Of a DNA stretch of 64,000 bases, positions 38,825 through 64,000 are shown piece after piece. The notes under the pieces were generated by a model. That model did no database searches. It was not told the origin of the DNA and saw only the letters and a list, made by a program, of their open reading frames with translations. This stretch comes from Diprion similis (lineage: Eukaryota; Arthropoda; Insecta; Hymenoptera; Diprionidae). The translations under genes were made by a program, and so were the position numbers. Location of the stretch: the NCBI RefSeq assembly GCF_021155765.1, contig NC_060116.1, forward strand, positions 11,346,001 through 11,410,000, read 5' to 3'. Numbering within the stretch: position 1 is the stretch's first letter; every line of letters begins with the position of its first letter.

Positions 38825-41800
38825 GTGCCCTCAAAAATTAATTGCAGCACTTTTCAAAGTCGTCGAAATTTTCACCAAAAATGCAAAGGGGTTAGCCTTG
38901 GATTTTTTTTGGCCGAAAAATCTTTTGTTCCGGAATCGATTTGTATGACCATCTCTAGAGTAATTCGACCCCCAGGAACTCAGAAAACACATGAAAAAGA
39001 GCGTAGGACCATCAGCAGAGAAATGACGGTGAAAATCTGCAGTTTTTCGGCTGTAACTTTACAGGTGTTGCTCGCAGCGCATTGGGACTGCGATCAATCG
39101 ATTTCTCTCGCAAAATTACGTCGGAATAGTGCCCTCAAAAATTAATTGCAGCACTTTTCAAAGTCGTCGAAATTTTCACCAAAAATGCAAAGGGGTTAGC
39201 CTTGGATTTTTTTTGGCCGAAAAATCTTTTGTTCCGGAATCGATTTGTATGACCATCTCTAGAGTAATTCGACCCCCAGGAACTCAGAAAACACATGAAA
39301 AAGAGCGTAGGACCATCAGCAGAGAAATGACGGTGAAAATCTGCAGTTTTTCGGCTGTAACTTTACAGGTGTTGCTCGCAGCGCATTGGGACTGCGATCA
39401 ATCGATTTCTCTCGCAAAATTACGTCGGAATAGTGCCCTCAAAAATTAATTGCAGCACTTTTCAAAGTCGTCGAAATTTTCACCAAAAATGCAAAGGGGT
39501 TAGCCTTGGATTTTTTTTGGCCGAAAAATCTTTTGTTCCGGAATCGATTTGTATGACCATCTCTAGAGTAATTCGACCCCCAGGAACTCAGAAAACACAT
39601 GAAAAAGAGCGTAGGACCATCAGCAGAGAAATGACGGTGAAACTCTGCAGTTTTTCGGCTGTAACTTTACAGGTGTTGCTCGCAGCGCATTGGGACTGCG
39701 ATCAATCGATTTCTCTCGCAAAATTACGTCGGAATAGTGCCCTCAAAAATTAATTGCAGCACTTTTCAAAGTCGTCGAAATTTTCACCAAAAATGCAAAG
39801 GGGTTAGCCTTGGATTTTTTTTGGCCGAAAAATCTTTTGTTCCGGAATCGATTTGTATGACCATCTCTAGAGTAATTCGACCCCCAGGAACTCAGAAAAC
39901 ACATGAAAAAGAGCGTAGGACCATCAGCAGAGAAATGACGGTGAAAATCTGCAGTTTTTCGGCTGTAACTTTACAGGTGTTGCTCGCAGCGCATTGGGAC
40001 TGCGATCAATCGATTTCTCTCGCAAAATTACGTCGGAATAGTGCCCTCAAAAATTAATTGCAGCACTTTTCAAAGTCGTCGAAATTTTCACCAAAAATGC
40101 AAAGGGGTTAGCCTTGGATTTTTTTTGGCCGAAAAATCTTTTGTTCCGGAATCGATTTGTATGACCATCTCTAGAGTAATTCGACCCCCAGGAACTCAGA
40201 AAACACATGAAAAAGAGCGTAGGACCATCAGCAGAGAAATGACGGTGAAACTCTGCAGTTTTTCGGCTGTAACTTTACAGGTGTTGCTCGCAGCGCATTG
40301 GGACTGCGATCAATCGATTTCTCTCGCAAAATTACGTCGGAATAGTGCCCTCAAAAATTAATTGCAGCACTTTTCAAAGTCGTCGAAATTTTCACCAAAA
40401 ATGCAAAGGGGTTAGCCTTGGATTTTTTTTGGCCGAAAAATCTTTTGTTCCGGAATCGATTTGTATGACCATCTCTAGAGTAATTCGACCCCCAGGAACT
40501 CAGAAAACACATGAAAAAGAGCGTAGGACCATCAGCAGAGAAATGACGGTGAAAATCTGCAGTTTTTCGGCTGTAACTTTACAGGTGTTGCTCGCAGCGC
40601 ATTGGGACTGCGATCAATCGATTTCTCTCGCAAAATTACGTCGGAATAGTGCCCTCAAAAATTAATTGCAGCACTTTTCAAAGTCGTCGAAATTTTCACC
40701 AAAAATGCAAAGGGGTTAGCCTTGGATTTTTTTTGGCCGAAAAATCTTTTGTTCCGGAATCGATTTGTATGACCATCTCTAGAGTAATTCGACCCCCAGG
40801 AACTCAGAAAACACATGAAAAAGAGCGTAGGACCATCAGCAGAGAAATGACGGTGAAAATCTGCAGTTTTTCGGCTGTAACTTTACAGGTGTTGCTCGCA
40901 GCGCATTGGGACTGCGATCAATCGATTTCTCTCGCAAAATTACGTCGGAATAGTGCCCTCAAAAATTAATTGCAGCACTTTTCAAAGTCGTCGAAATTTT
41001 CACCAAAAATGCAAAGGGGTTAGCCTTGGATTTTTTTTGGCCGAAAAATCTTTTGTTCCGGAATCGATTTGTATGACCATCTCTAGAGTAATTCGACCCC
41101 CAGGAACTCAGAAAACACATGAAAAAGAGCGTAGGACCATCAGCAGAGAAATGACGGTGAAAATCTGCAGTTTTTCGGCTGTAACTTTACAGGTGTTGCT
41201 CGCAGCGCATTGGGACTGCGATCAATCGATTTCTCTCGCAAAATTACGTCGGAATAGTGCCCTCAAAAATTAATTGCAGCACTTTTCAAAGTCGTCAAAA
41301 TTTTCACCAAAAATGCAAAGGGGTTAGCCTTGGATTTTTTTTGGCCGAAAAATCTTTTGTTCCGGAATCGATTTGTATGACCATCTCTAGAGTAATTCGA
41401 CCCCCAGGAACTCAGAAAACACATGAAAAAGAGCGTAGGACCATCAGCAGAGAAATGACGGTGAAAATCTGCAGTTTTTCGGCTGTAACTTTACAGGTGT
41501 TGCTCGCAGCGCATTGGGACTGCGATCAATCGATTTCTCTCGCAAAATTACGTCGGAATAGTGCCCTCAAAAATTAATTGCAGCACTTTTCAAAGTCGTC
41601 GAAATTTTCACCAAAAATGCAAAGGGGTTAGCCTTGGATTTTTTTTGGCCGAAAAATCTTTTGTTCCGGAATCGATTTGTATGACCATCTCTAGAGTAAT
41701 TCGACCCCCAGGAACTCAGAAAACACATGAAAAAGAGCGTAGGACCATCAGCAGAGAAATGACGGTGAAACTCTGCAGTTTTTCGGCTGTAACTTTACAG

Positions 41801-44800
41801 GTGTTGCTCGCAGCGCATTGGGACTGCGATCAATCGATTTCTCTCGCAAAATTACGTCGGAATAGTGCCCTCAAAAATTAATTGCAGCACTTTTCAAAGT
41901 CGTCGAAATTTTCACCAAAAATGCAAAGGGGTTAGCCTTGGATTTTTTTTGGCCGAAAAATCTTTTGTTCCGGAATCGATTTGTATGACCATCTCTAGAG
42001 TAATTCGACCCCCAGGAACTCAGAAAACACATGAAAAAGAGCGTAGGACCATCAGCAGAGAAATGACGGTGAAAATCTGCAGTTTTTCGGCTGTAACTTT
42101 ACAGGTGTTGCTCGCAGCGCATTGGGACTGCGATCAATCGATTTCTCTCGCAAAATTACGTCGGAATAGTGCCCTCAAAAATTAATTGCAGCACTTTTCA
42201 AAGTCGTCGAAATTTTCACCAAAAATGCAAAGGGGTTAGCCTTGGATTTTTTTTGGCCGAAAAATCTTTTGTTCCGGAATCGATTTGTATGACCATCTCT
42301 AGAGTAATTCGACCCCCAGGAACTCAGAAAACACATGAAAAAGAGCGTAGGACCATCAGCAGAGAAATGACGGTGAAAATCTGCAGTTTTTCGGCTGTAA
42401 CTTTACAGGTGTTGCTCGCAGCGCATTGGGACTGCGATCAATCGATTTCTCTCGCAAAATTACGTCGGAATAGTGCCCTCAAAAATTAATTGCAGCACTT
42501 TTCAAAGTCGTCGAAATTTTCACCAAAAATGCAAAGGGGTTAGCCTTGGATTTTTTTTGGCCGAAAAATCTTTTGTTCCGGAATCGATTTGTATGACCAT
42601 CTCTAGAGTAATTCGACCCCCAGGAACTCAGAAAACACATGAAAAAGAGCGTAGGACCATCAGCAGAGAAATGACGGTGAAAATCTGCAGTTTTTCAGCT
42701 GTAACTTTACAGGTGTTGCTCGCAGCGCATTGGGACTGCGATCAATCGATTTCTCTCGCAAAATTACGTCGGAATAGTGCCCTCAAAAATTAATTGCAGC
42801 ACTTTTCAAAGTCGTCGAAATTTTCACCAAAAATGCAAAGGGGTTAGCCTTGGATTTTTTTTGGCCGAAAAATCTTTTGTTCCGGAATCGATTTGTATGA
42901 CCATCTCTAGAGTAATTCGACCCCCAGGAACTCAGAAAACACATGAAAAAGAGCGTAGGACCATCAGCAGAGAAATGACGGTGAAAATCTGCAGTTTTTC
43001 GGCTGTAACTTTACAGGTGTTGCTCGCAGCGCATTGGGACTGCGATCAATCGATTTCTCTCGCAAAATTACGTCGGAATAGTGCCCTCAAAAATTAATTG
43101 CAGCACTTTTCAAAGTCGTCGAAATTTTCACCAAAAATGCAAAGGGGTTAGCCTTGGATTTTTTTTGGCCGAAAAATCTTTTGTTCCGGAATCGATTTGT
43201 ATGACCATCTCTAGAGTAATTCGACCCCCAGGAACTCAGAAAACACATGAAAAAGAGCGTAGGACCATCAGCAGAGAAATGACGGTGAAAATCTGCAGTT
43301 TTTCGGCTGTAACTTTACAGGTGTTGCTCGCAGCGCATTGGGACTGCGATCAATCGATTTCTCTCGCAAAATTACGTCGGAATAGTGCCCTCAAAAATTA
43401 ATTGCAGCACTTTTCAAAGTCGTCGAAATTTTCACCAAAAATGCAAAGGGGTTAGCCTTGGATTTTTTTTGGCCGAAAAATCTTTTGTTCCGGAATCGAT
43501 TTGTATGACCATCTCTAGAGTAATTCGACCCCCAGGAACTCAGAAAACACATGAAAAAGAGCGTAGGACCATCAGCAGAGAAATGACGGTGAAAATCTGC
43601 AGTTTTTCGGCTGTAACTTTACAGGTGTTGCTCGCAGCGCATTGGGACTGCGATCAATCGATTTCTCTCGCAAAATTACGTCGGAATAGTGCCCTCAAAA
43701 ATTAATTGCAGCACTTTTCAAAGTCGTCGAAATTTTCACCAAAAATGCAAAGGGGTTAGCCTTGGATTTTTTTTGGCCGAAAAATCTTTTGTTCCGGAAT
43801 CGATTTGTATGACCATCTCTAGAGTAATTCGACCCCCAGGAACTCAGAAAACACATGAAAAAGAGCGTAGGACCATCAGCAGAGAAATGACGGTGAAACT
43901 CTGCAGTTTTTCGGCTGTAACTTTACAGGTGTTGCTCGCAGCGCATTGGGACTGCGATCAATCGATTTCTCTCGCAAAATTACGTCGGAATAGTGCCCTC
44001 AAAAATTAATTGCAGCACTTTTCAAAGTCGTCGAAATTTTCACCAAAAATGCAAAGAGGTTAGCCTTGGATTTTTTTTGGCCGAAAAATCTTTTGTTCCG
44101 GAATCGATTTGTATGACCATCTCTAGAGTAATTCGACCCCCAGGAACTCAGAAAACACATGAAAAAGAGCGTAGGACCATCAGCAGAGAAATGACGGTGA
44201 AAATCTGCAGTTTTTCGGCTGTAACTTTACAGGTGTTGCTCGCAGCGCATTGGGACTGCGATCAATCGATTTCTCTCGCAAAATCACGTCGGAATAGTGC
44301 CCTCAAAAATTAATTGCAGCACTTTTCAAAGTCGTCGAAATTTTCACCAAAAATGCAAAGGGGTTAGCCTTGGATTTTTTTTGGCCGAAAAATCTTTTGT
44401 TCCGGAATCGATTTGTATGACCATCTCTAGAGTAATTCGACCCCCAGGAACTCAGAAAACACATGAAAAAGAGCGTAGGACCATCAGCAGAGAAATGACG
44501 GTGAAAATCTGCAGTTTTTCGGCTGTAACTTTACAGGTGTTGCTCGCAGCGAATTCGGACTGCGATCAATCGATTTCTCTCGCAAAATTACGTCGGAATA
44601 GTGCCCTCAAAAATTAATTGCAGCACTTTTCAAAGTCGTCGAAATTTTCACCAAAAATGCAAAGGGGTTAGCCTTGGATTTTTTTTGGCCGAAAAATCTT
44701 TTGTTCCGGAATCGATTTGTATGACCATCTCTAGAGTAATTCGACCCCCAGGAACTCAGAAAACACATGAAAAAGAGCGTAGGACCATCAGCAGAGAAAT

Positions 44801-44904
44801 GACGGTGAAAATCTGCAGTTTTTCGGCTGTAACTTTACAGGTGTTGCTCGCAGCGCATTGGGACTGCGATCAATCGATTTCTCTCGCAAAATTACGTCGG
44901 AATA
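38825..44904. repeat. Homogeneous monomer zone without clear higher-order structure
   Basis: Twenty consecutive 304-base monomers that are almost identical. The few variants are scattered: a C for A change (GAAACTCTGC instead of GAAAATCTGC) in the monomers starting at 39433, 40041, 41561 and 43689; GTCGTCAAAA in the one at 41257; GCAAAGAGG and AAAATCACG in the one at 43993; and GCGAATTCGG in the one at 44297. No regular long-range period is evident among these, in contrast to the zone to the right. Confidence 0.8.
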
Positions 44905-47900
44905 GTGCCCTCAAAAATTAATTGCAGCACTTTTCAAAGTCGTCGAAATTTTCACCAAAAATGCAAAGGGGTTAGCCTTGGATTTTTTTTTGCCCAAATA
45001 TCTTTTGTTCCGGAATCGATTTGTATGACCATCTCTAGAGTAATTCGACCCCCAGGAACTCAGAAAACACATGAAAAAGAGCGTAGGACCATCAGCAGAG
45101 AAATGACGGTGAAAATCTGCAGTTTTTCGGCTGTAACTTTACAGGTGTTGCTCGCAGCGCATTGGGACTGCGATCAATCGATTTCTCTCGCAAAATTACG
45201 TCGGAATAGTGCCCTCAAAAATTAATTGCAGCACTTTTCAAAGTCGTCGAAATTTTCACCAAAAATGCAAAGGGGTTAGCCTTGGATTTTTTTTGGCCGA
45301 AAAATCTTTTGTTCCGGAATCGATTTGTATGACCATCTCTAGAGTAATTCGACCCCCAGGAACTCAGAAAACACATGAAAAAGAGCGTAGGACCATCAGC
45401 AGAGAAATGACGGTGAAAATCTGCAGTTTTTCGGCTGTAACTTTACAGGTGTTGCTCGCAGCGCATTGGGACTGCGATCAATCGATTTCTCTCGCAAAAT
45501 TACGTCGAAATAGTGCCCTTAAAAATTAATTGCAGCACTTTTCAAAGTCGTCGAAATTTTCACCAAAAATGCAAAGGGGTTAGCCTTGGATTTTTTTTGG
45601 CCGAAAAATCTTTTGTTCCGGAATCGATTTGTATGACCATCTCCAGAGTAATTCGACCCCCAGGAACTCAGAAAACACATGAAAAAGAGCGTAGGACCAT
45701 CAGCAGAGAAATGACGGTGAAAATCTGCAGTTTTTCGGCTGTAACTTTACAGGTGTTGCTCGCAGCGCATTGGGACTGCGATCAATCGATTTCTCTCGCA
45801 AAATTACGTCGGAATAGTGCCCTCAAAAATTAATTGCAGCACTTTTCAAAGTCGTCGAAATTTTCACCAAAAATGCAAAGGGGTTAGCCTTGGATTTTTT
45901 TTGGCCGAAAAATCTTTTGTTCCGGAATCGATTTGTATGACCATCTCTAGAGTAATTCGACCCCCAGGAACTCAGAAAACACATGAAAAAGAGCGTAGGA
46001 CCATCAGCAGAGAAATGACGGTGAAAATCTGCAGTTTTTCGGCTGTAACTTTACAGGTGTTGCTCGCAGCGCATTGGGACTGCGATCAATCGATTTCTCT
46101 CGCAAAATTACGTCGGAATAGTGCCCTCAAAAATTAATTGCAGCACTTTTCAAAGTCGTCAAAATTTTCACCAAAAATGCAAAGGGGTTAGCCTTGGATT
46201 TTTTTTGGCCGAAAAATCCTTTGTTCCGGAATCGATTTGTATGACCATCTCTAGAGTAATTCGACCCCCAGGAACTCAGAAAACACATGAAAAAGAGCGT
46301 AGGACCATCAGCAGAGAAATGACGGCGAAAATCTGCAGTTTTTCGGCTGTAACTTTACAGGTGTTGCTCGCAGCGCATTGGGACTGCGATCAATCGATTT
46401 CTCTCGCAAAATTACGTCGGAATAGTGCCCTCAAAAATTAATTGCAGCACTTTTCAAAGTCGTCGAAATTTTCACCAAAAATGCAAAGGGGTTAGCATTG
46501 GATTTTTTTTGGCCGAAAAATCTTTTGTTCCGGAATCGATTTGTATGACCATCTCTAGAGTAATTCGACCCCCAGGAACTCAGAAAACACACGAAAAAGA
46601 GCGTAGGACCATCAGCAGAGAAATGACGGTGAAAATCTGCAGTTTTTCGGCTGTAACTTTACAGGTGTTGCTCGCAGCGCATTGGGACTGCGATCTATCG
46701 ATTTCTCTCGCAAAATTACGTCGGAATAGTGCCCTCAAAAATTAATTGCAGCACTTTTCAAAGTCGTCGAAATTTTCACCAAAAATGCAAAGGGGTTAGC
46801 CTTGGATTTTTTTTGGCCGAAAAATCTTTTGTTCCGGAATCGATTTGTATGACCATCTCTAGAGTAATTCGACCCCCAGGAACTCAGAAAACACATGAAA
46901 AAGAGCGTAGGACCATCAGCAGAGAAATGACGGTGAAAATCTGCAGTTTTTCGGCTGTAACTTTACAGGTGTTGCTCGCAGCGCATTGGGACTGCGATCA
47001 ATCGATTTCTCTCGCAAAATTACGTCGGAATAGTGCCCTCAAAAATTAATTGCAGCACTTTTCAAAGTCGTCGAAATTTTCACCAAAAATGCAAAGGGGT
47101 TAGCCTTGGATTTTTTTTGGCCGAAAAATCTTTTGTTCCGGAATCGATTTGTATGACCATCTCTAGAGTAATTCGACCCCCAGGAACTCAGAAAACACAT
47201 GAAAAAGAGCGTAGGACCATCAGCAGAGAAATGACGGTGAAAATCTGCAGTTTTTCGGCTGTAACTTTACAGGTGTTGCTCGCAGCGCATTGGGACTGCG
47301 ATCAATCGATTTCTCTCGCAAAATTACGTCGGAATAGTGCCCTCAAAAATTAATTGCAGCACTTTTCAAAGTCGTCGAAATTTTCACCAAAAATGCAAAG
47401 GGGTTAGCCTTGGATTTTTTTTGGCCGAAAAATCTTTTGTTCCGGAATCGATTTGTATGACCATCTCTAGAGTAATTCGACCCCCAGGAACTCAGAAAAC
47501 ACATGAAAAAGAGCGTAGGACCATCAGCAGAGAAATGACGGTGAAAATCTGCAGTTTTTCGGCTGTAACTTTACAGGTGTTGCTCGCAGCGCATTGGGAC
47601 TGCGATCAATCGATTTCTCTCGCAAAATTACGTCGGAATAGTGCCCTCAAAAATTAATTGCAGCACTTTTCAAAGTCGTCGAAATTTTCACCAAAAATGC
47701 AAAGGGGTTAGCCTTGGATTTTTTTTGGCCGAAAAATCTTTTGTTCCGGAATCGATTTGTATGACCATCTCTAGAGTAATTCGACCCCCAGGAACTCAGA
47801 AAACACATGAAAAAGAGCGTTGGACCATCAGCAGAGAAATGACGGTGAAAATCTGCAGTTTTTCGGCTGTAACTTTACAGGTGTTGCTCGCAGCGCATTG

Positions 47901-50900
47901 GGACTGCGATCAATCGATTTCTCTCGCAAAATTACGTCGGAATAGTGCCCTCAAAAATTAATTGCAGCACTTTTCAAAGTCGTCGAAATTTTCACCAAAA
48001 ATGCAAAGGGGTTAGCCTTGGATTTTTTTTGGCCGAAAAATCTTTTGTTCCGGAATCGATTTGTATGACCATCTCTAGAGTAATTCGACCCCCAGGAACT
48101 CAGAAAACACATGAAAAAGAGCGTAGGACCATCAGCAAAGAAATGACGGTGAAACTCTGCAGTTTTTCGGCTGTAACTTTACAGGTGTTGCTCGCAGCGC
48201 ATTGGGACTGCAATCAATCGATTTCTCTCGCAAAATTACGTCGGAATAGTGCCCTCAAAAATTAATTGCAGCACTTTTCAAAGTCGTCGAAATTTTCACC
48301 AAAAATGCAAAGGGGTTAGCCTTGGATTTTTTTTGGCCGAAAAATCTTTTGTTCCGGAATCGATTTGTATGACCATCTCTAGAGTAATTCGACCCCCAGG
48401 AACTCAGAAAACACATGAAAAAGAGCGTAGGACCATCAGCAGAGAAATGACGGTGAAAATCTGCAGTTTTTCGGCTGTAACTTTACAGGTGTTGCTTGCA
48501 GCGAATTCGGACTGCGATCAATCGATTTCTCTTGCAAAATTACGTCGGAATAGTGCCCTCAAAAATTAATTGCAGCACTTTTCAAAGTCGTCGAAATTTT
48601 CACCAAAAATGCAAAGGGGTTAGCCTTGGATTTTTTTTGGCCGAAAAATCTTTTGTTCCGGAATCGATTTGTATGACCATCTCTAGAGTAATTCGACCCC
48701 CAGGAACTCAGAAAACACATGAAAAAGAGCGTAGGACCATCAGCAGAGAAATGACGGTGAAAATCTGCAGTTTTTCGGCTGTAACTTTACAGGTGTTGCT
48801 CGCAGCGCATTGGGACTGCGATCAATCGATTTCTCTCGCAAAATTACGTCGAAATAGTGCCCTTAAAAATTAATTGCAGCACTTTTCAAAGTCGTCGAAA
48901 TTTTCACCAAAAATGCAAAGGGGTTAGCCTTGGATTTTTTTTGGCCGAAAAATCTTTTGTTCCGGAATCGATTTGTATGACCATCTCCAGAGTAATTCGA
49001 CCCCCAGGAACTCAGAAAACACATGAAAAAGAGCGTAGGACCATCAGCAGAGAAATGACGGTGAAAATCTGCAGTTTTTCGGCTGTAACTTTACAGGTGT
49101 TGCTCGCAGCGCATTGGGACTGCGATCAATCGATTTCTCTCGCAAAATTACGTCGGAATAGTGCCCTCAAAAATTAATTGCAGCACTTTTCAAAGTCGTC
49201 GAAATTTTCACCAAAAATGCAAAGGGGTTAGCCTTGGATTTTTTTTGGCCGAAAAATCTTTTGTTCCGGAATCGATTTGTATGACCATCTCTAGAGTAAT
49301 TCGACCCCCAGGAACTCAGAAAACACATGAAAAAGAGCGTAGGACCATCAGCAGAGAAATGACGGTGAAAATCTGCAGTTTTTCGGCTGTAACTTTACAG
49401 GTGTTGCTCGCAGCGCATTGGGACTGCGATCAATCGATTTCTCTCGCAAAATTACGTCGGAATAGTGCCCTCAAAAATTAATTGCAGCACTTTTCAAAGT
49501 CGTCAAAATTTTCACCAAAAATGCAAAGGGGTTAGCCTTGGATTTTTTTTGGCCGAAAAATCTTTTGTTCCGGAATCGATTTGTATGACCATCTCTAGAG
49601 TAATTCGACCCCCAGGAACTCAGAAAACACATGAAAAAGAGCGTAGGACCATCAGCAGAGAAATGACGGCGAAAATCTGCAGTTTTTCGGCTGTAACTTT
49701 ACAGGTGTTGCTCGCAGCGCATTGGGACTGCGATCAATCGATTTCTCTCGCAAAATTACGTCGGAATAGTGCCCTCAAAAATTAATTGCAGCACTTTTCA
49801 AAGTCGTCGAAATTTTCACCAAAAATGCAAAGGGGTTAGCATTGGATTTTTTTTGGCCGAAAAATCTTTTGTTCCGGAATCGATTTGTATGACCATCTCT
49901 AGAGTAATTCGACCCCCAGGAACTCAGAAAACACACGAAAAAGAGCGTAGGACCATCAGCAGAGAAATGACGGTGAAAATCTGCAGTTTTTCGGCTGTAA
50001 CTTTACAGGTGTTGCTCGCAGCGCATTGGGACTGCGATCTATCGATTTCTCTCGCAAAATTACGTCGGAATAGTGCCCTCAAAAATTAATTGCAGCACTT
50101 TTCAAAGTCGTCGAAATTTTCACCAAAAATGCAAAGGGGTTAGCCTTGGATTTTTTTTGGCCGAAAAATCTTTTGTTCCGGAATCGATTTGTATGACCAT
50201 CTCTAGAGTAATTCGACCCCCAGGAACTCAGAAAACACATGAAAAAGAGCGTAGGACCATCAGCAGAGAAATGACGGTGAAAATCTGCAGTTTTTCGGCT
50301 GTAACTTTACAGGTGTTGCTCGCAGCGCATTGGGACTGCGATCAATCGATTTCTCTCGCAAGATTACGTCGGAATAGTGCCCTCAAAAATTAATTGCAGC
50401 ACTTTTCAAAGTCGTCGAAATTTTCACCAAAAATGCAAAGGGGTTAGCCTTGGATTTTTTTTGGCCGAAAAATCTTTTGTTCCGGAATCGATTTGTATGA
50501 CCATCTCTAGAGTAATTCGACCCCCAGGAACTCAGAAAACACATGAAAAAGAGCGTAGGACCATCAGCAGAGAAATGACGGTGAAAATCTGCAGTTTTTC
50601 GGCTGTAACTTTACAGGTGTTGCTCGCAGCGCATTGGGACTGCGATCAATCGATTTCTCTCGCAAAATTACGTCGGAATAGTGCCCTCAAAAATTAATTG
50701 CAGCACTTTTCAAAGTCGTCGAAATTTTCACCAAAAATGCAAAGGGGTTAGCCTTGGATTTTTTTTGGCCGAAAAATCTTTTGTTCCGGAATCGATTTGT
50801 ATGACCATCTCTAGAGTAATTCGACCCCCAGGAACTCAGAAAACACATGAAAAAGAGCGTAGGACCATCAGCAGAGAAATGACGGTGAAAATCTGCAGTT

Positions 50901-50984
50901 TTTCGGCTGTAACTTTACAGGTGTTGCTCGCAGCGCATTGGGACTGCGATCAATCGATTTCTCTCGCAAAATTACGTCGGAATA
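44905..50984. repeat. Higher-order repeat unit A (20 monomers, 6,080 bp)
   Basis: First full 20-monomer higher-order unit. Numbering monomers 0-19 from 44905: 0 has TTGCCCAAATATC; 2 has CGAAATAGTGCCCTT and CTCCAGAG; 4 has GTCGTCAAAA, AAATCCTTTG and GACGGCG; 5 has GTTAGCATTGG, ACACACG and GATCTATCG; 9 has GCGTTGGACC; 10 has GCAAAGAAATG, GAAACTCTG and GCAATCAATC; 11 has GCTTGCAGCGAATTCGG; 13 repeats the variant of 2; 15 and 16 repeat those of 4 and 5; 17 has GCAAGATTACG. The next unit carries the same variants at the same places. Confidence 0.9.
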
Positions 50985-53900
50985 GTGCCCTCAAAAATTA
51001 ATTGCAGCACTTTTCAAAGTCGTCGAAATTTTCACCAAAAATGCAAAGGGGTTAGCCTTGGATTTTTTTTTGCCCAAATATCTTTTGTTCCGGAATCGAT
51101 TTGTATGACCATCTCTAGAGTAATTCGACCCCCAGGAACTCAGAAAACACATGAAAAAGAGCGTAGGACCATCAGCAGAGAAATGACGGTGAAAATCTGC
51201 AGTTTTTCGGCTGTAACTTTACAGGTGTTGCTCGCAGCGCATTGGGACTGCGATCAATCGATTTCTCTCGCAAAATTACGTCGGAATAGTGCCCTCAAAA
51301 ATTAATTGCAGCACTTTTCAAAGTCGTCGAAATTTTCACCAAAAATGCAAAGGGGTTAGCCTTGGATTTTTTTTGGCCGAAAAATCTTTTGTTCCGGAAT
51401 CGATTTGTATGACCATCTCTAGAGTAATTCGACCCCCAGGAACTCAGAAAACACATGAAAAAGAGCGTAGGACCATCAGCAGAGAAATGACGGTGAAAAT
51501 CTGCAGTTTTTCGGCTGTAACTTTACAGGTGTTGCTCGCAGCGCATTGGGACTGCGATCAATCGATTTCTCTCGCAAAATTACGTCGAAATAGTGCCCTT
51601 AAAAATTAATTGCAGCACTTTTCAAAGTCGTCGAAATTTTCACCAAAAATGCAAAGGGGTTAGCCTTGGATTTTTTTTGGCCGAAAAATCTTTTGTTCCG
51701 GAATCGATTTGTATGACCATCTCCAGAGTAATTCGACCCCCAGGAACTCAGAAAACACATGAAAAAGAGCGTAGGACCATCAGCAGAGAAATGACGGTGA
51801 AAATCTGCAGTTTTTCGGCTGTAACTTTACAGGTGTTGCTCGCAGCGCATTGGGACTGCGATCAATCGATTTCTCTCGCAAAATTACGTCGGAATAGTGC
51901 CCTCAAAAATTAATTGCAGCACTTTTCAAAGTCGTCGAAATTTTCACCAAAAATGCAAAGGGGTTAGCCTTGGATTTTTTTTGGCCGAAAAATCTTTTGT
52001 TCCGGAATCGATTTGTATGACCATCTCTAGAGTAATTCGACCCCCAGGAACTCAGAAAACACATGAAAAAGAGCGTAGGACCATCAGCAGAGAAATGACG
52101 GTGAAAATCTGCAGTTTTTCGGCTGTAACTTTACAGGTGTTGCTCGCAGCGCATTGGGACTGCGATCAATCGATTTCTCTCGCAAAATTACGTCGGAATA
52201 GTGCCCTCAAAAATTAATTGCAGCACTTTTCAAAGTCGTCAAAATTTTCACCAAAAATGCAAAGGGGTTAGCCTTGGATTTTTTTTGGCCGAAAAATCCT
52301 TTGTTCCGGAATCGATTTGTATGACCATCTCTAGAGTAATTCGACCCCCAGGAACTCAGAAAACACATGAAAAAGAGCGTAGGACCATCAGCAGAGAAAT
52401 GACGGCGAAAATCTGCAGTTTTTCGGCTGTAACTTTACAGGTGTTGCTCGCAGCGCATTGGGACTGCGATCAATCGATTTCTCTCGCAAAATTACGTCGG
52501 AATAGTGCCCTCAAAAATTAATTGCAGCACTTTTCAAAGTCGTCGAAATTTTCACCAAAAATGCAAAGGGGTTAGCATTGGATTTTTTTTGGCCGAAAAA
52601 TCTTTTGTTCCGGAATCGATTTGTATGACCATCTCTAGAGTAATTCGACCCCCAGGAACTCAGAAAACACACGAAAAAGAGCGTAGGACCATCAGCAGAG
52701 AAATGACGGTGAAAATCTGCAGTTTTTCGGCTGTAACTTTACAGGTGTTGCTCGCAGCGCATTGGGACTGCGATCTATCGATTTCTCTCGCAAAATTACG
52801 TCGGAATAGTGCCCTCAAAAATTAATTGCAGCACTTTTCAAAGTCGTCGAAATTTTCACCAAAAATGCAAAGGGGTTAGCCTTGGATTTTTTTTGGCCGA
52901 AAAATCTTTTGTTCCGGAATCGATTTGTATGACCATCTCTAGAGTAATTCGACCCCCAGGAACTCAGAAAACACATGAAAAAGAGCGTAGGACCATCAGC
53001 AGAGAAATGACGGTGAAAATCTGCAGTTTTTCGGCTGTAACTTTACAGGTGTTGCTCGCAGCGCATTGGGACTGCGATCAATCGATTTCTCTCGCAAAAT
53101 TACGTCGGAATAGTGCCCTCAAAAATTAATTGCAGCACTTTTCAAAGTCGTCGAAATTTTCACCAAAAATGCAAAGGGGTTAGCCTTGGATTTTTTTTGG
53201 CCGAAAAATCTTTTGTTCCGGAATCGATTTGTATGACCATCTCTAGAGTAATTCGACCCCCAGGAACTCAGAAAACACATGAAAAAGAGCGTAGGACCAT
53301 CAGCAGAGAAATGACGGTGAAAATCTGCAGTTTTTCGGCTGTAACTTTACAGGTGTTGCTCGCAGCGCATTGGGACTGCGATCAATCGATTTCTCTCGCA
53401 AAATTACGTCGGAATAGTGCCCTCAAAAATTAATTGCAGCACTTTTCAAAGTCGTCGAAATTTTCACCAAAAATGCAAAGGGGTTAGCCTTGGATTTTTT
53501 TTGGCCGAAAAATCTTTTGTTCCGGAATCGATTTGTATGACCATCTCTAGAGTAATTCGACCCCCAGGAACTCAGAAAACACATGAAAAAGAGCGTAGGA
53601 CCATCAGCAGAGAAATGACGGTGAAAATCTGCAGTTTTTCGGCTGTAACTTTACAGGTGTTGCTCGCAGCGCATTGGGACTGCGATCAATCGATTTCTCT
53701 CGCAAAATTACGTCGGAATAGTGCCCTCAAAAATTAATTGCAGCACTTTTCAAAGTCGTCGAAATTTTCACCAAAAATGCAAAGGGGTTAGCCTTGGATT
53801 TTTTTTGGCCGAAAAATCTTTTGTTCCGGAATCGATTTGTATGACCATCTCTAGAGTAATTCGACCCCCAGGAACTCAGAAAACACATGAAAAAGAGCGT

Positions 53901-56900
53901 TGGACCATCAGCAGAGAAATGACGGTGAAAATCTGCAGTTTTTCGGCTGTAACTTTACAGGTGTTGCTCGCAGCGCATTGGGACTGCGATCAATCGATTT
54001 CTCTCGCAAAATTACGTCGGAATAGTGCCCTCAAAAATTAATTGCAGCACTTTTCAAAGTCGTCGAAATTTTCACCAAAAATGCAAAGGGGTTAGCCTTG
54101 GATTTTTTTTGGCCGAAAAATCTTTTGTTCCGGAATCGATTTGTATGACCATCTCTAGAGTAATTCGACCCCCAGGAACTCAGAAAACACATGAAAAAGA
54201 GCGTAGGACCATCAGCAAAGAAATGACGGTGAAACTCTGCAGTTTTTCGGCTGTAACTTTACAGGTGTTGCTCGCAGCGCATTGGGACTGCAATCAATCG
54301 ATTTCTCTCGCAAAATTACGTCGGAATAGTGCCCTCAAAAATTAATTGCAGCACTTTTCAAAGTCGTCGAAATTTTCACCAAAAATGCAAAGGGGTTAGC
54401 CTTGGATTTTTTTTGGCCGAAAAATCTTTTGTTCCGGAATCGATTTGTATGACCATCTCTAGAGTAATTCGACCCCCAGGAACTCAGAAAACACATGAAA
54501 AAGAGCGTAGGACCATCAGCAGAGAAATGACGGTGAAAATCTGCAGTTTTTCGGCTGTAACTTTACAGGTGTTGCTTGCAGCGAATTCGGACTGCGATCA
54601 ATCGATTTCTCTTGCAAAATTACGTCGGAATAGTGCCCTCAAAAATTAATTGCAGCACTTTTCAAAGTCGTCGAAATTTTCACCAAAAATGCAAAGGGGT
54701 TAGCCTTGGATTTTTTTTGGCCGAAAAATCTTTTGTTCCGGAATCGATTTGTATGACCATCTCTAGAGTAATTCGACCCCCAGGAACTCAGAAAACACAT
54801 GAAAAAGAGCGTAGGACCATCAGCAGAGAAATGACGGTGAAAATCTGCAGTTTTTCGGCTGTAACTTTACAGGTGTTGCTCGCAGCGCATTGGGACTGCG
54901 ATCAATCGATTTCTCTCGCAAAATTACGTCGAAATAGTGCCCTTAAAAATTAATTGCAGCACTTTTCAAAGTCGTCGAAATTTTCACCAAAAATGCAAAG
55001 GGGTTAGCCTTGGATTTTTTTTGGCCGAAAAATCTTTTGTTCCGGAATCGATTTGTATGACCATCTCCAGAGTAATTCGACCCCCAGGAACTCAGAAAAC
55101 ACATGAAAAAGAGCGTAGGACCATCAGCAGAGAAATGACGGTGAAAATCTGCAGTTTTTCGGCTGTAACTTTACAGGTGTTGCTCGCAGCGCATTGGGAC
55201 TGCGATCAATCGATTTCTCTCGCAAAATTACGTCGGAATAGTGCCCTCAAAAATTAATTGCAGCACTTTTCAAAGTCGTCGAAATTTTCACCAAAAATGC
55301 AAAGGGGTTAGCCTTGGATTTTTTTTGGCCGAAAAATCTTTTGTTCCGGAATCGATTTGTATGACCATCTCTAGAGTAATTCGACCCCCAGGAACTCAGA
55401 AAACACATGAAAAAGAGCGTAGGACCATCAGCAGAGAAATGACGGTGAAAATCTGCAGTTTTTCGGCTGTAACTTTACAGGTGTTGCTCGCAGCGCATTG
55501 GGACTGCGATCAATCGATTTCTCTCGCAAAATTACGTCGGAATAGTGCCCTCAAAAATTAATTGCAGCACTTTTCAAAGTCGTCAAAATTTTCACCAAAA
55601 ATGCAAAGGGGTTAGCCTTGGATTTTTTTTGGCCGAAAAATCTTTTGTTCCGGAATCGATTTGTATGACCATCTCTAGAGTAATTCGACCCCCAGGAACT
55701 CAGAAAACACATGAAAAAGAGCGTAGGACCATCAGCAGAGAAATGACGGCGAAAATCTGCAGTTTTTCGGCTGTAACTTTACAGGTGTTGCTCGCAGCGC
55801 ATTGGGACTGCGATCAATCGATTTCTCTCGCAAAATTACGTCGGAATAGTGCCCTCAAAAATTAATTGCAGCACTTTTCAAAGTCGTCGAAATTTTCACC
55901 AAAAATGCAAAGGGGTTAGCATTGGATTTTTTTTGGCCGAAAAATCTTTTGTTCCGGAATCGATTTGTATGACCATCTCTAGAGTAATTCGACCCCCAGG
56001 AACTCAGAAAACACACGAAAAAGAGCGTAGGACCATCAGCAGAGAAATGACGGTGAAAATCTGCAGTTTTTCGGCTGTAACTTTACAGGTGTTGCTCGCA
56101 GCGCATTGGGACTGCGATCTATCGATTTCTCTCGCAAAATTACGTCGGAATAGTGCCCTCAAAAATTAATTGCAGCACTTTTCAAAGTCGTCGAAATTTT
56201 CACCAAAAATGCAAAGGGGTTAGCCTTGGATTTTTTTTGGCCGAAAAATCTTTTGTTCCGGAATCGATTTGTATGACCATCTCTAGAGTAATTCGACCCC
56301 CAGGAACTCAGAAAACACATGAAAAAGAGCGTAGGACCATCAGCAGAGAAATGACGGTGAAAATCTGCAGTTTTTCGGCTGTAACTTTACAGGTGTTGCT
56401 CGCAGCGCATTGGGACTGCGATCAATCGATTTCTCTCGCAAGATTACGTCGGAATAGTGCCCTCAAAAATTAATTGCAGCACTTTTCAAAGTCGTCGAAA
56501 TTTTCACCAAAAATGCAAAGGGGTTAGCCTTGGATTTTTTTTGGCCGAAAAATCTTTTGTTCCGGAATCGATTTGTATGACCATCTCTAGAGTAATTCGA
56601 CCCCCAGGAACTCAGAAAACACATGAAAAAGAGCGTAGGACCATCAGCAGAGAAATGACGGTGAAAATCTGCAGTTTTTCGGCTGTAACTTTACAGGTGT
56701 TGCTCGCAGCGCATTGGGACTGCGATCAATCGATTTCTCTCGCAAAATTACGTCGGAATAGTGCCCTCAAAAATTAATTGCAGCACTTTTCAAAGTCGTC
56801 GAAATTTTCACCAAAAATGCAAAGGGGTTAGCCTTGGATTTTTTTTGGCCGAAAAATCTTTTGTTCCGGAATCGATTTGTATGACCATCTCTAGAGTAAT

Positions 56901-57064
56901 TCGACCCCCAGGAACTCAGAAAACACATGAAAAAGAGCGTAGGACCATCAGCAGAGAAATGACGGTGAAAATCTGCAGTTTTTCGGCTGTAACTTTACAG
57001 GTGTTGCTCGCAGCGCATTGGGACTGCGATCAATCGATTTCTCTCGCAAAATTACGTCGGAATA
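50985..57064. repeat. Higher-order repeat unit B (20 monomers, 6,080 bp)
   Basis: Second full unit. Every diagnostic variant listed for unit A recurs exactly 6,080 bases later, including the rare AAATCCTTTG in monomer 4 (absent from the related monomer 15). This shows that the whole 20-mer was copied as a block rather than variants arising repeatedly. Confidence 0.9.
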
Positions 57065-60000
57065 GTGCCCTCAAAAATTAATTGCAGCACTTTTCAAAGT
57101 CGTCGAAATTTTCACCAAAAATGCAAAGGGGTTAGCCTTGGATTTTTTTTGGCCGAAAAATCTTTTGTTCCGGAATCGATTTGTATGACCAACTCTAGAG
57201 TAATTCGACCCCCAGGAACTCAGAAAACACATGAAAAAGAGCGTAGGACCATCAGCAGAGAAATGACGGTGAAAATCTGCAGTTTTTCGGCTGTAACTTT
57301 ACAGGTGTTGCTCGCAGCGCATTGGGACTGCGATCAATCGATTTCTCTCGCAAAATTACGTCGGAATAGTGCCCTTAAAAATTAATTGCAGCACTTTTCA
57401 AAGTCGTCGAAATTTTCACCAAAAATGCAAAGGGGTTAGCCTTGGATTTTTTTTGGCCGAAAAATCTTTTGTTCCGGAATCGATTTGTATGACCATCTCT
57501 AGAGTAATTCGACCCCCAGGAACTCAGAAAACACATGAAAAAGAGCGTAGGACCATCAGCAGAGAAATGACGGTGAAAATCTGCAGTTTTTCGGCTGTAA
57601 CTTTACAGGTGTTGCTCGCAGCGCATTGGGACTGCGATCAATCGATTTCTCTCGCAAAATTACGTCGGAATAGTGCCCTCAAAAATTAATTGCAGCACTT
57701 TTCAAAGTCGTCGAAATTTTCACCAAAAATGCAAAGGGGTTAGCATTGGATTTTTTTTGGCCGAAAAATCTTTTGTTCCGGAATCGATTTGTATGACCAT
57801 CTCTAGAGTAATTCGACCCCCAGGAACTCAGAAAACACATGAAAAAGAGCGTAGGACCATCAGCAGAGAAATGACGGTGAAAATCTGCAGTTTTTCGGCT
57901 GTAACTTTACAGGTGTTGCTCGCAGCGCATTGGGACTGCGATCAATCGATTTCTCTCGCAAAATTACGTCGGAATAGTGCCCTCAAAAATTAATTGCAGC
58001 ACTTTTCAAAGTCGTCGAAATTTTCACCAAAAATGCAAAGGGGTTAGCCTTGGATTTTTTTTGGCCGAAAAATCTTTTGTTCCGGAATCGATTTGTATGA
58101 CCATCTCTAGAGTAATTCGACCCCCAGGAACTCAGAAAACACACGAAAAAGAGCGTAGGACCATCAGCAGAGAAATGACGGTGAAAATCTGCAGTTTTTC
58201 GGCTGTAACTTTACAGGTGTTGCTCGCAGCGCATTGGGACTGCGATCTATCGATTTCTCTCGCAAAATTACGTCGGAATAGTGCCCTCAAAAATTAATTG
58301 CAGCACTTTTCAAAGTCGTCGAAATTTTCACCAAAAATGCAAAGGGGTTAGCCTTGGATTTTTTTTGGCCGAAAAATCTTTTGTTCCGGAATCGATTTGT
58401 ATGACCATCTCTAGAGTAATTCGACCCCCAGGAACTCAGAAAACACACGAAAAAGAGCGTAGGACCATCAGCAGAGAAATGACGGTGAAAATCTGCAGTT
58501 TTTCGGCTGTAACTTTACAGGTGTTGCTCGCAGCGCATTGGGACTGCGATAAATCGATTTCTCTCGCAAAATTACGTCGGAATAGTGCCCTCAAAAATTA
58601 ATTGCAGCACTTTTCAAAGTCGTCGAAATTTTCACCAAAAATGCAAAGGGGTTAGCCTTGGATTTTTTTTGGCTGAAAAATCTTTTGTTCCGGAATCGAT
58701 TTGTATGACCATCTCTAGAGTAATTCGACCCCCAGGAACTCAGAAAACACATGAAAAAGAGCGTAGGACCATCAGCAGAGAAATGACGGTGAAAATCTGC
58801 AGTTTTTCGGCTGTAACTTTACAGGTGTTGCTCGCAGCGCATTGGGACTGCGATCAATCGATTTCTCTCGCAAAATTACGTCGGAATAGTGCCCTCAAAA
58901 ATTAATTGCAGCACTTTTCAAAGTCGTCGAAATTTTCACCAAAAATGCAAAGGGGTTAGCCTTGGATTTTTTTTGGCCGAAAAATCTTTTGTTCCGGAAT
59001 CGATTTGTATGACCAACTCTAGAGTAATTCGACCCCCAGGAACTCAGAAAACACATGAAAAAGAGCGTAGGACCATCAGCAGAGAAATGACGGTGAAAAT
59101 CTGCAGTTTTTCGGCTGTAACTTTACAGGTGTTGCTCGCAGCGCATTGGGACTGCGATCAATCGATTTCTCTCGCAAAATTACGTCGGAATAGTGCCCTC
59201 AAAAATTAATTGCAGCACTTTTCAAAGTCGTCGAAATTTTCACCAAAAATGCAAAGGGGTTAGCCTTGGATTTTTTTTGGCCGAAAAATCTTTTGTTCCG
59301 GAATCGATTTGTATGACCATCTCTAGAGTAATTCGACCCCCAGGAACTCAGAAAACACATGAAAAAGAGCGTAGGACCATCAGCAGAGAAATGACGGTGA
59401 AAATCTGCAGTTTTTCGGCTGTAACTTTACAGGTGTTGCTCGCAGCGCATTGGGACTGCGATCAATCGATTTCTCTCGCAAAATTACGTCGGAATAGTGC
59501 CCTCAAAAATTAATTGCAGCACTTTTCAAAGTCGTCGAAATTTTCACCAAAAATGCAAAGGGGTTAGCCTTGGATTTTTTTTGGCCGAAAAATCTTTTGT
59601 TCCGGAATCGATTTGTATGACCATCTCTAGAGTAATTCGACCCCCAGGAACTCAGAAAACACATGAAAAAGAGCGTAGGACCATCAGCAGAGAAATGACG
59701 GTGAAAATCTGCAGTTTTTCGGCTGTAACTTTACAGGTGTTGCTCGCAGCGCATTGGGACTGCGATCAATCGATTTCTCTCGCAAAATTACGTCGGAATA
59801 GTGCCCTCAAAAATTAATTGCAGCACTTTTCAAAGTCGTCGAAATTTTCACCAAAAATGCAAAGGGGTTAGCCTTGGATTTTTTTTGGCCGAAAAATCTT
59901 TTGTTCCGGAATCGATTTGTATGACCATCTCTAGAGTAATTCGACCCCCAGGAACTCAGAAAACACATGAAAAAGAGCGTTGGACCATCAGCAGAGAAAT

Positions 60001-63000
60001 GACGGTGAAAATCTGCAGTTTTTCGGCTGTAACTTTACAGGTGTTGCTCGCAGCGCATTGGGACTGCGATCAATCGATTTCTCTCGCAAAATTACGTCGG
60101 AATAGTGCCCTCAAAAATTAATTGCAGCACTTTTCAAAGTCGTCGAAATTTTCACCAAAAATGCAAAGGGGTTAGCCTTGGATTTTTTTTGGCCGAAAAA
60201 TCTTTTGTTCCGGAATCGATTTGTATGACCATCTCTAGAGTAATTCGACCCCCAGGAACTCAGAAAACACATGAAAAAGAGCGTAGGACCATCAGCAGAG
60301 AAATGACGGTGAAACTCTGCAGTTTTTCGGCTGTAACTTTACAGGTGTTGCTCGCAGCGCATTGGGACTGCAATCAATCGATTTCTCTCGCAAAATTACG
60401 TCGGAATAGTGCCCTCAAAAATTAATTGCAGCACTTTTCAAAGTCGTCGAAATTTTCACCAAAAATGCAAAGGGGTTAGCCTTGGATTTTTTTTGGCCGA
60501 AAAATCTTTTGTTCCGGAATCGATTTGTATGACCATCTCTAGAGTAATTCGACCCCCAGGAACTCAGAAAACACATGAAAAAGAGCGTAGGACCATCAGC
60601 AGAGAAATGACGGTGAAAATCTGCAGTTTTTCGGCTGTAACTTTACAGGTGTTGCTTGCAGCGAATTCGGACTGCGATCAATCGATTTCTCTTGCAAAAT
60701 TACGTCGGAATAGTGCCCTCAAAAATTAATTGCAGCACTTTTCAAAGTCGTCGAAATTTTCACCAAAAATGCAAAGGGGTTAGCCTTGGATTTTTTTTGG
60801 CCGAAAAATCTTTTGTTCCGGAATCGATTTGTATGACCATCTCTAGAGTAATTCGACCCCCAGGAACTCAGAAAACACATGAAAAAGAGCGTAGGACCAT
60901 CAGCAGAGAAATGACGGTGAAAATCTGCAGTTTTTCGGCTGTAACTTTACAGGTGTTGCTCGCAGCGCATTGGGACTGCGATCAATCGATTTCTCTCGCA
61001 AAATTACGTCGAAATAGTGCCCTTAAAAATTAATTGCAGCACTTTTCAAAGTCGTCGAAATTTTCACCAAAAATGCAAAGGGGTTAGCCTTGGATTTTTT
61101 TTGGCCGAAAAATCTTTTGTTCCGGAATCGATTTGTATGACCATCTCCAGAGTAATTCGACCCCCAGGAACTCAGAAAACACATGAAAAAGAGCGTAGGA
61201 CCATCAGCAGAGAAATGACGGTGAAAATCTGCAGTTTTTCGGCTGTAACTTTACAGGTGTTGCTCGCAGCGCATTGGGACTGCGATCAATCGATTTCTCT
61301 CGCAAAATTACGTCGGAATAGTGCCCTCAAAAATTAATTGCAGCACTTTTCAAAGTCGTCGAAATTTTCACCAAAAATGCAAAGGGGTTAGCCTTGGATT
61401 TTTTTTGGCCGAAAAATCTTTTGTTCCGGAATCGATTTGTATGACCATCTCTAGAGTAATTCGACCCCCAGGAACTCAGAAAACACATGAAAAAGAGCGT
61501 AGGACCATCAGCAGAGAAATGACGGTGAAAATCTGCAGTTTTTCGGCTGTAACTTTACAGGTGTTGCTCGCAGCGCATTGGGACTGCGATCAATCGATTT
61601 CTCTCGCAAAATTACGTCGGAATAGTGCCCTCAAAAATTAATTGCAGCACTTTTCAAAGTCGTCAAAATTTTCACCAAAAATGCAAAGGGGTTAGCCTTG
61701 GATTTTTTTTGGCCGAAAAATCTTTTGTTCCGGAATCGATTTGTATGACCATCTCTAGAGTAATTCGACCCCCAGGAACTCAGAAAACACATGAAAAAGA
61801 GCGTAGGACCATCAGCAGAGAAATGACGGCGAAAATCTGCAGTTTTTCGGCTGTAACTTTACAGGTGTTGCTCGCAGCGCATTGGGACTGCGATCAATCG
61901 ATTTCTCTCGCAAAATTACGTCGGAATAGTGCCCTCAAAAATTAATTGCAGCACTTTTCAAAGTCGTCGAAATTTTCACCAAAAATGCAAAGGGGTTAGC
62001 ATTGGATTTTTTTTGGCCGAAAAATCTTTTGTTCCGGAATCGATTTGTATGACCATCTCTAGAGTAATTCGACCCCCAGGAACTCAGAAAACACACGAAA
62101 AAGAGCGTAGGACCATCAGCAGAGAAATGACGGTGAAAATCTGCAGTTTTTCGGCTGTAACTTTACAGGTGTTGCTCGCAGCGCATTGGGACTGCGATCT
62201 ATCGATTTCTCTCGCAAAATTACGTCGGAATAGTGCCCTCAAAAATTAATTGCAGCACTTTTCAAAGTCGTCGAAATTTTCACCAAAAATGCAAAGGGGT
62301 TAGCCTTGGATTTTTTTTGGCCGAAAAATCTTTTGTTCCGGAATCGATTTGTATGACCATCTCTAGAGTAATTCGACCCCCAGGAACTCAGAAAACACAT
62401 GAAAAAGAGCGTAGGACCATCAGCAGAGAAATGACGGTGAAAATCTGCAGTTTTTCGGCTGTAACTTTACAGGTGTTGCTCGCAGCGCATTGGGACTGCG
62501 ATCAATCGATTTCTCTCGCAAAATTACGTCGGAATAGTGCCCTCAAAAATTAATTGCAGCACTTTTCAAAGTCGTCGAAATTTTCACCAAAAATGCAAAG
62601 GGGTTAGCCTTGGATTTTTTTTGGCCGAAAAATCTTTTGTTCCGGAATCGATTTGTATGACCATCTCTAGAGTAATTCGACCCCCAGGAACTCAGAAAAC
62701 ACATGAAAAAGAGCGTAGGACCATCAGCAGAGAAATGACGGTGAAAATCTGCAGTTTTTCGGCTGTAACTTTACAGGTGTTGCTCGCAGCGCATTGGGAC
62801 TGCGATCAATCGATTTCTCTCGCAAAATTACGTCGGAATAGTGCCCTCAAAAATTAATTGCAGCACTTTTCAAAGTCGTCGAAATTTTCACCAAAAATGC
62901 AAAGGGGTTAGCCTTGGATTTTTTTTGGCCGAAAAATCTTTTGTTCCGGAATCGATTTGTATGACCAACTCTAGAGTAATTCGACCCCCAGGAACTCAGA

Positions 63001-63144
63001 AAACACATGAAAAAGAGCGTAGGACCATCAGCAGAGAAATGACGGTGAAAATCTGCAGTTTTTCGGCTGTAACTTTACAGGTGTTGCTCGCAGCGCATTG
63101 GGACTGCGATCAATCGATTTCTCTCGCAAAATTACGTCGGAATA
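57065..63144. repeat. Partly rearranged higher-order repeat unit C
   Basis: Third period. Monomers 9-16 (59801-62232) carry the variants of units A and B at the expected 6,080-base offset, apart from loss of the GCAAAGAAATG change in monomer 10. Monomers 0-8 differ: 0 and 6 have GACCAACTCTAG, 1 has GTGCCCTTAAAA without the linked CTCCAG change, 2 has GTTAGCATTGG, 3 has ACACACG with GATCTATCG, and 4 has ACACACG with GATAAATCG. Monomer 17 lacks GCAAGATTACG. From monomer 19 (62841) onward the variants match monomers 0, 2 and 3 of this unit at a 19-monomer offset (5,776 bases). Confidence 0.8.
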
Positions 63145-64000
63145 GTGCCCTCAAAAATTAATTGCAGCACTTTTCAAAGTCGTCGAAATTTTCACCAAAA
63201 ATGCAAAGGGGTTAGCCTTGGATTTTTTTTGGCCGAAAAATCTTTTGTTCCGGAATCGATTTGTATGACCATCTCTAAAGTAATTCGACCCCCAGGAACT
63301 CAGAAAACACATGAAAAAGAGCGTAGGACCATCAGCAGAGAAATGACGGTGAAAATCTGCAGTTTTTCGGCTGTAACTTTACAGGTGTTGCTCGCAGCGC
63401 ATTGGGACTGCGATCAATCGATTTCTCTCGCAAAATTACGTCGGAATAGTGCCCTCAAAAATTAATTGCAGCACTTTTCAAAGTCGTCGAAATTTTCACC
63501 AAAAATGCAAAGGGGTTAGCATTGGATTTTTTTTGGCCGAAAAATCTTTTGTTCCGGAATCGATTTGTATGACCATCTCTAGAGTAATTCGACCCCCAGG
63601 AACTCAGAAAACACATGAAAAAGAGCGTAGGACCATCAGCAGAGAAATGACGGTGAAAATCTGCAGTTTTTCGGCTGTAACTTTACAGGTGTTGCTCGCA
63701 GCGCATTGGGACTGCGATCAATCGATTTCTCTCGCAAAATTACGTCGGAATAGTGCCCTCAAAAATTAATTGCAGCACTTTTCAAAGTCGTCGAAATTTT
63801 CACCAAAAATGCAAAGGGGTTAGCCTTGGATTTTTTTTGGCCGAAAAATCTTTTGTTCCGGAATCGATTTGTATGACCATCTCTAGAGTAATTCGACCCC
63901 CAGGAACTCAGAAAACACACGAAAAAGAGCGTAGGACCATCAGCAGAGAAATGACGGTGAAAATCTGCAGTTTTTCGGCTGTAACTTTACAGGTGTTGCT

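What the first reader, a model, noticed from the sequence alone, without database searches (positions are those of the whole stretch)
44905..63144. 20-monomer higher-order repeat with exact 6,080-bp period
Marker variants recur at 20 x 304 bases: GCGTTGGACC at 47817, 53897 and 59977; the GCGAATTCGG/CTTGCA monomer at 48249, 54329 and 60409; the TTGCCCAAATATC monomer at 44905 and 50985. Units A and B agree in every variant I checked. Multi-monomer higher-order structure is best described for primate alpha satellite; a 20-mer in a probable insect is unusual.
Basis: seen in the sequence. Interest (0 to 1): 0.85.

Follow-up and report, generated by a model that had tools for sequence, protein, structure and literature searches.

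The report
Young 20-copy block repeat in satellite
A tandem array of near-identical 304-base repeats in a probable insect chromosome holds a block of 20 repeats that was copied side by side, a real but local and recent duplication of the kind that ordinary recombination makes in satellite DNA.

Summary
A 46-kb array (window 38,680 to about 84,962, past the window's right edge) holds 152 monomers of 304 bp in perfect register, 99.4% alike. Monomers 21-40 and 41-60 are identical, 20 of 20, and 44,557-51,070 matches the sequence 6,080 bp downstream without a mismatch. Variant sharing at lag 20 far exceeds shuffled order (49; mean 5.3, maximum 17 in 2000 shuffles). A third, partial, diverged copy (monomers 68-78) keeps lag 20 the best lag when unit A is deleted, so the A/B identity alone does not make it.

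The 20-mer covers about a third of the array. Monomers within a unit differ by 0.93%, not the 20-40% of alpha satellite. Its marker 33-mer occurs three times in the genome, all here. A sister array on C3 has its own 16-mer (15 of 16 monomers repeated exactly). The family was seen at 41 places on 10 contigs, some near genes or contig ends, so it does not look centromere-specific. Best reading: recent segmental duplication by unequal exchange. Higher-order repeats are already reported in beetles and grasshoppers.

The parts
38680..64000 (+). Tandem satellite array, 304-bp monomers in perfect register; continues past the window to about window-equivalent 84,962 (C12:11,430,962); 152 in-register monomers in all
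   Evidence: TRF 84 copies, 99% matches inside the window; 152 core hits all 304 apart; left exact start 38,680; monomer table
38240..38679 (+). Degenerate older monomer sequence at the left border (38,240-38,448 about 74% to the 342-bp type; then a 312-type-like copy)
   Evidence: blastn of consensus monomers against flanks; alignment row edgeL
38755..44834 (+). Monomers 1-20: near-consensus domain, 0-2 substitutions each, no variant shared at lag 20
44835..50914 (+). Higher-order unit A: monomers 21-40 (12 distinct monomer types, inner lag-11 echo 23-27 / 34-38)
50915..56994 (+). Higher-order unit B: monomers 41-60, identical to A in 20 of 20
56995..59122 (+). Monomers 61-67: in the place of the first part of a third unit but with different variants (21 differences from 41-47)
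59123..62466 (+). Partial third copy C: monomers 68-78 in register with 48-58 (one difference, in monomer 71)
34397..35702 (+). Two kinase-domain open frames of a PERK/eIF2alpha-kinase-like gene (that name is recalled, from no call), ending about 3 kb left of the array
   Evidence: Pfam PF00069

Best explanation
This is a non-coding satellite array in a chromosome arm, kept near-uniform by repeated unequal exchange (or replication slippage) between its copies. One recent event copied a block of about 20 monomers (6,080 bp) in tandem, giving units A and B. An earlier event of the same register left the partial third copy, and a shorter block copied earlier left the inner lag-11 echo. The 20-mer is thus a by-product of how large the exchanged block happened to be; no function of the number 20 is needed. 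Shown: the block identity, the lag statistics, the diverged third copy, privacy of the marker to this array, and a 16-mer in a sister array. Inferred: the mechanism (unequal sister exchange rather than rolling-circle reinsertion), the order and recent date of events, and the lack of function.
For: Exact 6,514-bp match at lag 6,080. Lag-20 excess, surviving removal of unit A. A second lag, 11, in the same array: 20 shared variants against a shuffle mean of 5.7 and maximum of 17, 0 of 2000; it rests on the echo inside the units. The unit's marker 33-mer occurs 3 times in the 269-Mb genome, all in this array, as expected if made in place. The C3 array: monomers 2-16 equal 18-32, 15 of 15; 4,869 bases compared at lag 4,864 with 7 mismatches, all in the first monomer. 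A plain neutral simulation of mutation plus duplication and deletion of blocks of up to 20 monomers gave an exact tandem block of 15 or more monomers in 16 of 25, 7 of 24 and 10 of 20 kept runs at three mutation rates; blocks up to 10 in 1 of 75; single monomers or blocks up to 3 in 0 of 150. Longest stop-free stretch in the array 130 residues, so no long coding frame.
Against: No reads were available. The simulation was crude: its nearest setting has 3.8 pairwise differences where the array has 1.9; 6 of 75 runs with blocks up to 20 and 73 of 75 with blocks up to 40 shrank below 60 monomers and were dropped. Apparent lags of 2 (monomers 86-97) and 4 (104-121) are visible in the table but do not exceed the best of the shuffles (5 against 5, 4 against 5). 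Best-lag tests in the other arrays are mixed: C3 at lag 16, 0 of 2000 (a test capped at lag 15 had not been significant, 417 of 1000), C12b lag 14, 1 of 1000, c2a lag 3, 7 of 1000, c2b lag 18, 20 of 1000.
Confidence: 0.82

Rival explanations
1. Assembly artefact: the assembler duplicated one 6,080-bp stretch, so A and B are the same DNA.
For: A and B are identical over 6,514 bp; no reads could be checked.
Against: With unit A deleted the lag-20 signal is still the best of the lags tested, 0 of 2000 shuffles reaching it, because of the diverged third copy; a second array has its own 16-mer. The assembly is contiguous (269 Mb in 60 contigs) with TTAGG repeats at the very start of C1.
Confidence: 0.1
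2. Centromeric higher-order array, working like primate alpha satellite.
For: A long homogeneous array with a multimonomer unit; mid-contig position (C12 11.4 of 17.8 Mb).
Against: The family was seen at 41 places (15 of them by one hit only) on 10 contigs, up to 10 on one contig, near contig ends as well as inside; kinase open frames end about 3 kb away; no match to the CENP-B box (motif recalled) within 2 mismatches in the 6 monomer sequences scanned; monomers of a unit are not strongly diverged.
Confidence: 0.04
3. Rolling-circle amplification of a 6-kb extrachromosomal circle of 20 monomers, reinserted in the array.
For: Would give exact tandem units in register, as seen.
Against: Only two full units, and the third copy is partial and diverged; an exchange within the array explains this with fewer steps. 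Sequence alone cannot separate them.
Confidence: 0.1

Closest known systems
Primate alpha-satellite higher-order repeats, including 'cascading' HORs (PMC11157248, PMC6718397, PMC8122249; passages seen)
   Same: Block of n monomers repeated in tandem at near identity; repeated monomer types inside a unit (cascading).
   Different: Monomers within a unit here differ by 0.93%, not 20-40%; about 2.5 copies where human chromosome 21 has 4 to 23 copies of its 20-33-mers (PMC6718397); no evidence of centromere function.
Higher-order repeats in Tribolium castaneum (Vlahovic et al. 2017, not held; seen only as cited in PMC5844308, PMC7598501 and PMC6718397)
   Same: Insect; HORs reported in tandem families of heterochromatin or euchromatin.
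   Different: Different monomers; the beetle's TCAST-containing HORs mix heterogeneous monomers with other elements, according to the passage in PMC7598501.
Satellites spread through euchromatin (TCAST families, Drosophila 1.688, locust satellites; PMC5844308 and PMC10048060 passages)
   Same: One satellite family at many places along chromosome arms, close to genes.
   Different: Here the three arrays read in full are about 30-46 kb with 95-99% pairwise identity; TCAST copies in euchromatin are preferentially single repeats (PMC5844308).

Membership tests
Satellite DNA array | Long head-to-tail non-coding repeats of fixed length | tested here: met
   152 monomers of 304 bp without indel; longest stop-free stretch in six frames 130 residues in 46,283 bp
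Higher-order repeat (operational) | Excess similarity at a multiple n of the monomer over other lags and over shuffled order | tested here: met
   Lag 20: 49 shared variants; next best is lag 11 with 20; 0 of 2000 shuffles reach 49 at any lag
Higher-order repeat (alpha-satellite type) | Monomers within a unit strongly diverged (about 20-40%), units nearly identical | tested here: not met
   Intra-unit mean 0.93%, 12 distinct types among 20; A and B identical; the 20-40% figure is from PMC6718397
Higher-order repeat (alpha-satellite type) | Unit spread over the whole array | tested here: not met
   Two full units and one partial among 152 monomers
Centromeric satellite | Confined to one main site per chromosome | tested here: not met
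   2 to 10 places on each of the 10 contigs where it was seen (from capped listings)
Centromeric satellite | Bound by CENP-A / kinetochore | not testable with these tools
   No chromatin data held

The most novel reading that the evidence does not exclude
One satellite family forms dozens of arrays along the chromosome arms of this genome, in three length classes (342, 312 and 304 bp), and each array grows its own private higher-order period (20 here, 16 on C3, perhaps 14 and 18 in two others). That would be a natural set of replicate experiments on how higher-order repeats arise without any centromere.
Probability: 0.5. Interest if true: 0.5.

Novelty: new member of a known kind. Interest (0 to 1): 0.35.

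Why it matters
Higher-order repeats are often discussed as a feature of centromeres. Here a large-unit one has formed in a small array within about 3 kb of kinase open frames, with possible precursor steps still readable: an inner lag-11 echo, a partial diverged third unit, then an exact 20-mer duplication. If the other arrays of the family behave alike, the birth and size of higher-order units could be measured across many independent arrays of one genome.

Tried and rejected
Centromere reading: set aside because the family was seen at 41 places on 10 contigs. A 152-bp (nucleosome-size) half-monomer: best inner lag of the monomer is 152, but at 32.2% identity against 31.9% at lag 142, so not claimed. 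Monomer secondary structure as DNA: z = -1.68, 7 of 100 shuffles fold as well, nothing claimed. Rfam at gathering scores: only a tRNA at 13,351-13,423, minus strand. Identity of the organism: the Apis_Csd family search found nothing, but its 14 control genomes also gave nothing, so it says nothing; the odorant-receptor family search did not complete. The organism is therefore not named; TTAGG telomere repeats fit an insect. Literature: 8 searches were answered; in their listings I recognised no paper on this 304/312/342-bp family, but the organism is unknown and only open-licence papers are held. Also opened and not used as evidence: PMC5024525 (abstract and outline), PMC13081366 and PMC13251583 (passages). 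Vlahovic et al. 2017 and the 2024 T. castaneum long-read paper are not held.

Full report
Check of the observation. The window lies in contig C12 (11,346,001-11,410,000) of an unnamed 269-Mb, 60-contig genome. TRF finds one long array, 38,451 to the window end, period 304, 99% matches. The next 100 kb show that the array ends at about window-equivalent 84,962; all 152 core hits are exactly 304 apart, and the monomer table gives 152 monomers with 0-7 substitutions against the majority monomer and no indels. Mean pairwise identity is 99.4% and 56 of 152 equal the majority monomer.

Strength. Counting variants shared between monomers i and i+lag, lag 20 gives 49; the next best, lag 11, gives 20. 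Shuffling the monomer order 2000 times gives a mean of 5.33 and a maximum of 17 at lag 20, and a maximum of 20 at any lag. Bases 44,557-51,070 equal those 6,080 bp downstream without a mismatch; monomers 21-40 equal 41-60 in 20 of 20. A third stretch, 61-80, differs from 41-60 by 24 bases, of which 21 lie in monomers 61-67; monomers 68-78 differ in one base.

Assembly artefact? Reads could not be examined. So the register is carried by at least two non-identical copies, B and C.

Extent. The 20-mer is not the plan of the whole array. Of the 49 shared variants, 0 start in monomers 1-20, 29 in 21-40, 15 in 41-60 and 5 in 61-132. Monomers 86-97 alternate (lag 2: 5 shared, best shuffle 5), 104-121 show lag 4 (4 shared, best shuffle 5), and 85-151 together show lag 2 first (9 shared, best shuffle 10): visible in the table but not beyond chance. 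Unit A holds a lag-11 echo (23-27 against 34-38); within unit A alone it equals the best shuffle (8 and 8), but over the array lag 11 has 20 shared variants against a mean of 5.7 and a maximum of 17 in 2000 shuffles of that lag. Monomers inside unit A differ by 0.93% on average and comprise 12 types.

Relatives in the genome. The exact 44-base core occurs 1879 times (1089 + 790). Pairs of a 16-base core exactly 304 apart: 1527 (981 + 546). Other arrays read: C2 10.48-10.52 Mb (122 core hits, 342 bp) and C2 12.14-12.17 Mb (91 core hits, 342 bp), and 10-kb parts of C12 4.47 Mb (312 bp, opposite strand) and C3 10.14 Mb (304 bp). Their alignment shows 342, 312 (a 30-bp gap) and 304 (a further 8-bp gap) as length classes; the copy at the left border here lacks only the 30 bp, like the 312 type. 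From the capped listings of six pattern searches (first 100 places each) I clustered 41 places more than 100 kb apart on 10 contigs; 15 of the 41 rest on one hit and may be solitary monomers; contigs not listed may also hold arrays. Some are near contig ends (C1 0.12 Mb, C2 22.56 of 22.78 Mb, C3 0.14 Mb).

Other arrays have their own lags. C3: lag 16, 28 shared variants in 32 monomers, 0 of 2000 shuffles; monomers 2-16 equal 18-32; 4,869 bases compared, 7 mismatches, all in the first monomer. A previous test of the same array was capped at lag 15 and was not significant (417 of 1000). C12b: lag 14, 1 of 1000; c2a: lag 3, 7 of 1000; c2b: lag 18, 20 of 1000. The marker 33-mer of this 20-mer is found three times in the genome, all in this array.

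Surroundings. Left: a PX/FERM sorting-nexin-like open frame (8,863-9,234), a homeodomain open frame (23,551-24,078, minus strand), kinase open frames (34,397-35,702); 4 of 8 frames scanned had no Pfam match; the gene name PERK is recalled. Right: a 1,771-residue open frame about 23 kb beyond the array end with no Pfam match. Degenerate monomer sequence lies at the left border (about 74%) and about 0.6 kb beyond the right end (66-70%), as expected of older, unhomogenised edges.

Mechanism. Blocks of monomers are exchanged out of register between sister chromatids or homologues. Edges escape homogenisation; the centre is repeatedly copied. One such event of 20 monomers gives A and B; a previous one in the same register and a shorter one (lag 11) seem still visible. 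A crude simulation with blocks of up to 20 monomers produced exact blocks of 15 or more monomers in 16 of 25, 7 of 24 and 10 of 20 kept runs; blocks up to 10 in 1 of 75; single monomers or blocks up to 3 in 0 of 150; with blocks up to 40 only 2 of 75 runs were kept, both with such a block. It did not match the observed diversity (3.8 or more pairwise differences against 1.9). Zero differences in 6,080 bp imply a young event; with a recalled insect mutation rate near 3e-9 per site and generation, the upper bound is some 80,000 generations unless conversion keeps the units alike (inference).

Comparison. Passages of PMC6718397 give 20-40% divergence inside alpha-satellite units and a few percent between them, and list 20-33-mers on human chromosome 21; PMC11157248 names 'cascading' units with repeated monomer types, which the lag-11 echo resembles. 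PMC5844308 states that higher-order repeats were detected in T. castaneum tandem families of heterochromatin or euchromatin; PMC8122249 mentions dimers and trimers in Chrysolina; PMC10048060 cites a Pyrgomorpha grasshopper study on higher-order repeats (title seen in its reference list). So the phenomenon in insects is known; an exact 20-mer of 99%-alike monomers in an arm array is a new instance as far as these searches show.

Verdict. Observation confirmed, with coordinate slips; the alpha-satellite comparison fails in two defining features tested; ordinary mechanism most likely; moderate interest because of the many parallel arrays.

Noticed in passing
G000 contigs C1-C4, C6-C10, C12: The satellite family was seen at 41 places, interstitial and near contig ends, on both strands; 342-, 312- and 304-bp classes among the arrays read.
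   Followed up: partly
L034 (C3:10,136,001-10,146,000): 16-monomer higher-order repeat (4,864 bp), 15 of 16 monomers repeated exactly, in a sister array.
   Followed up: partly
window 13349-13424: tRNA-Lys (TTT) gene on the minus strand (ARAGORN and Rfam).
   Followed up: no
L013:3752-9067 (minus strand): Open frame of 1,771 residues with many short internal repeats, no Pfam match.
   Followed up: no
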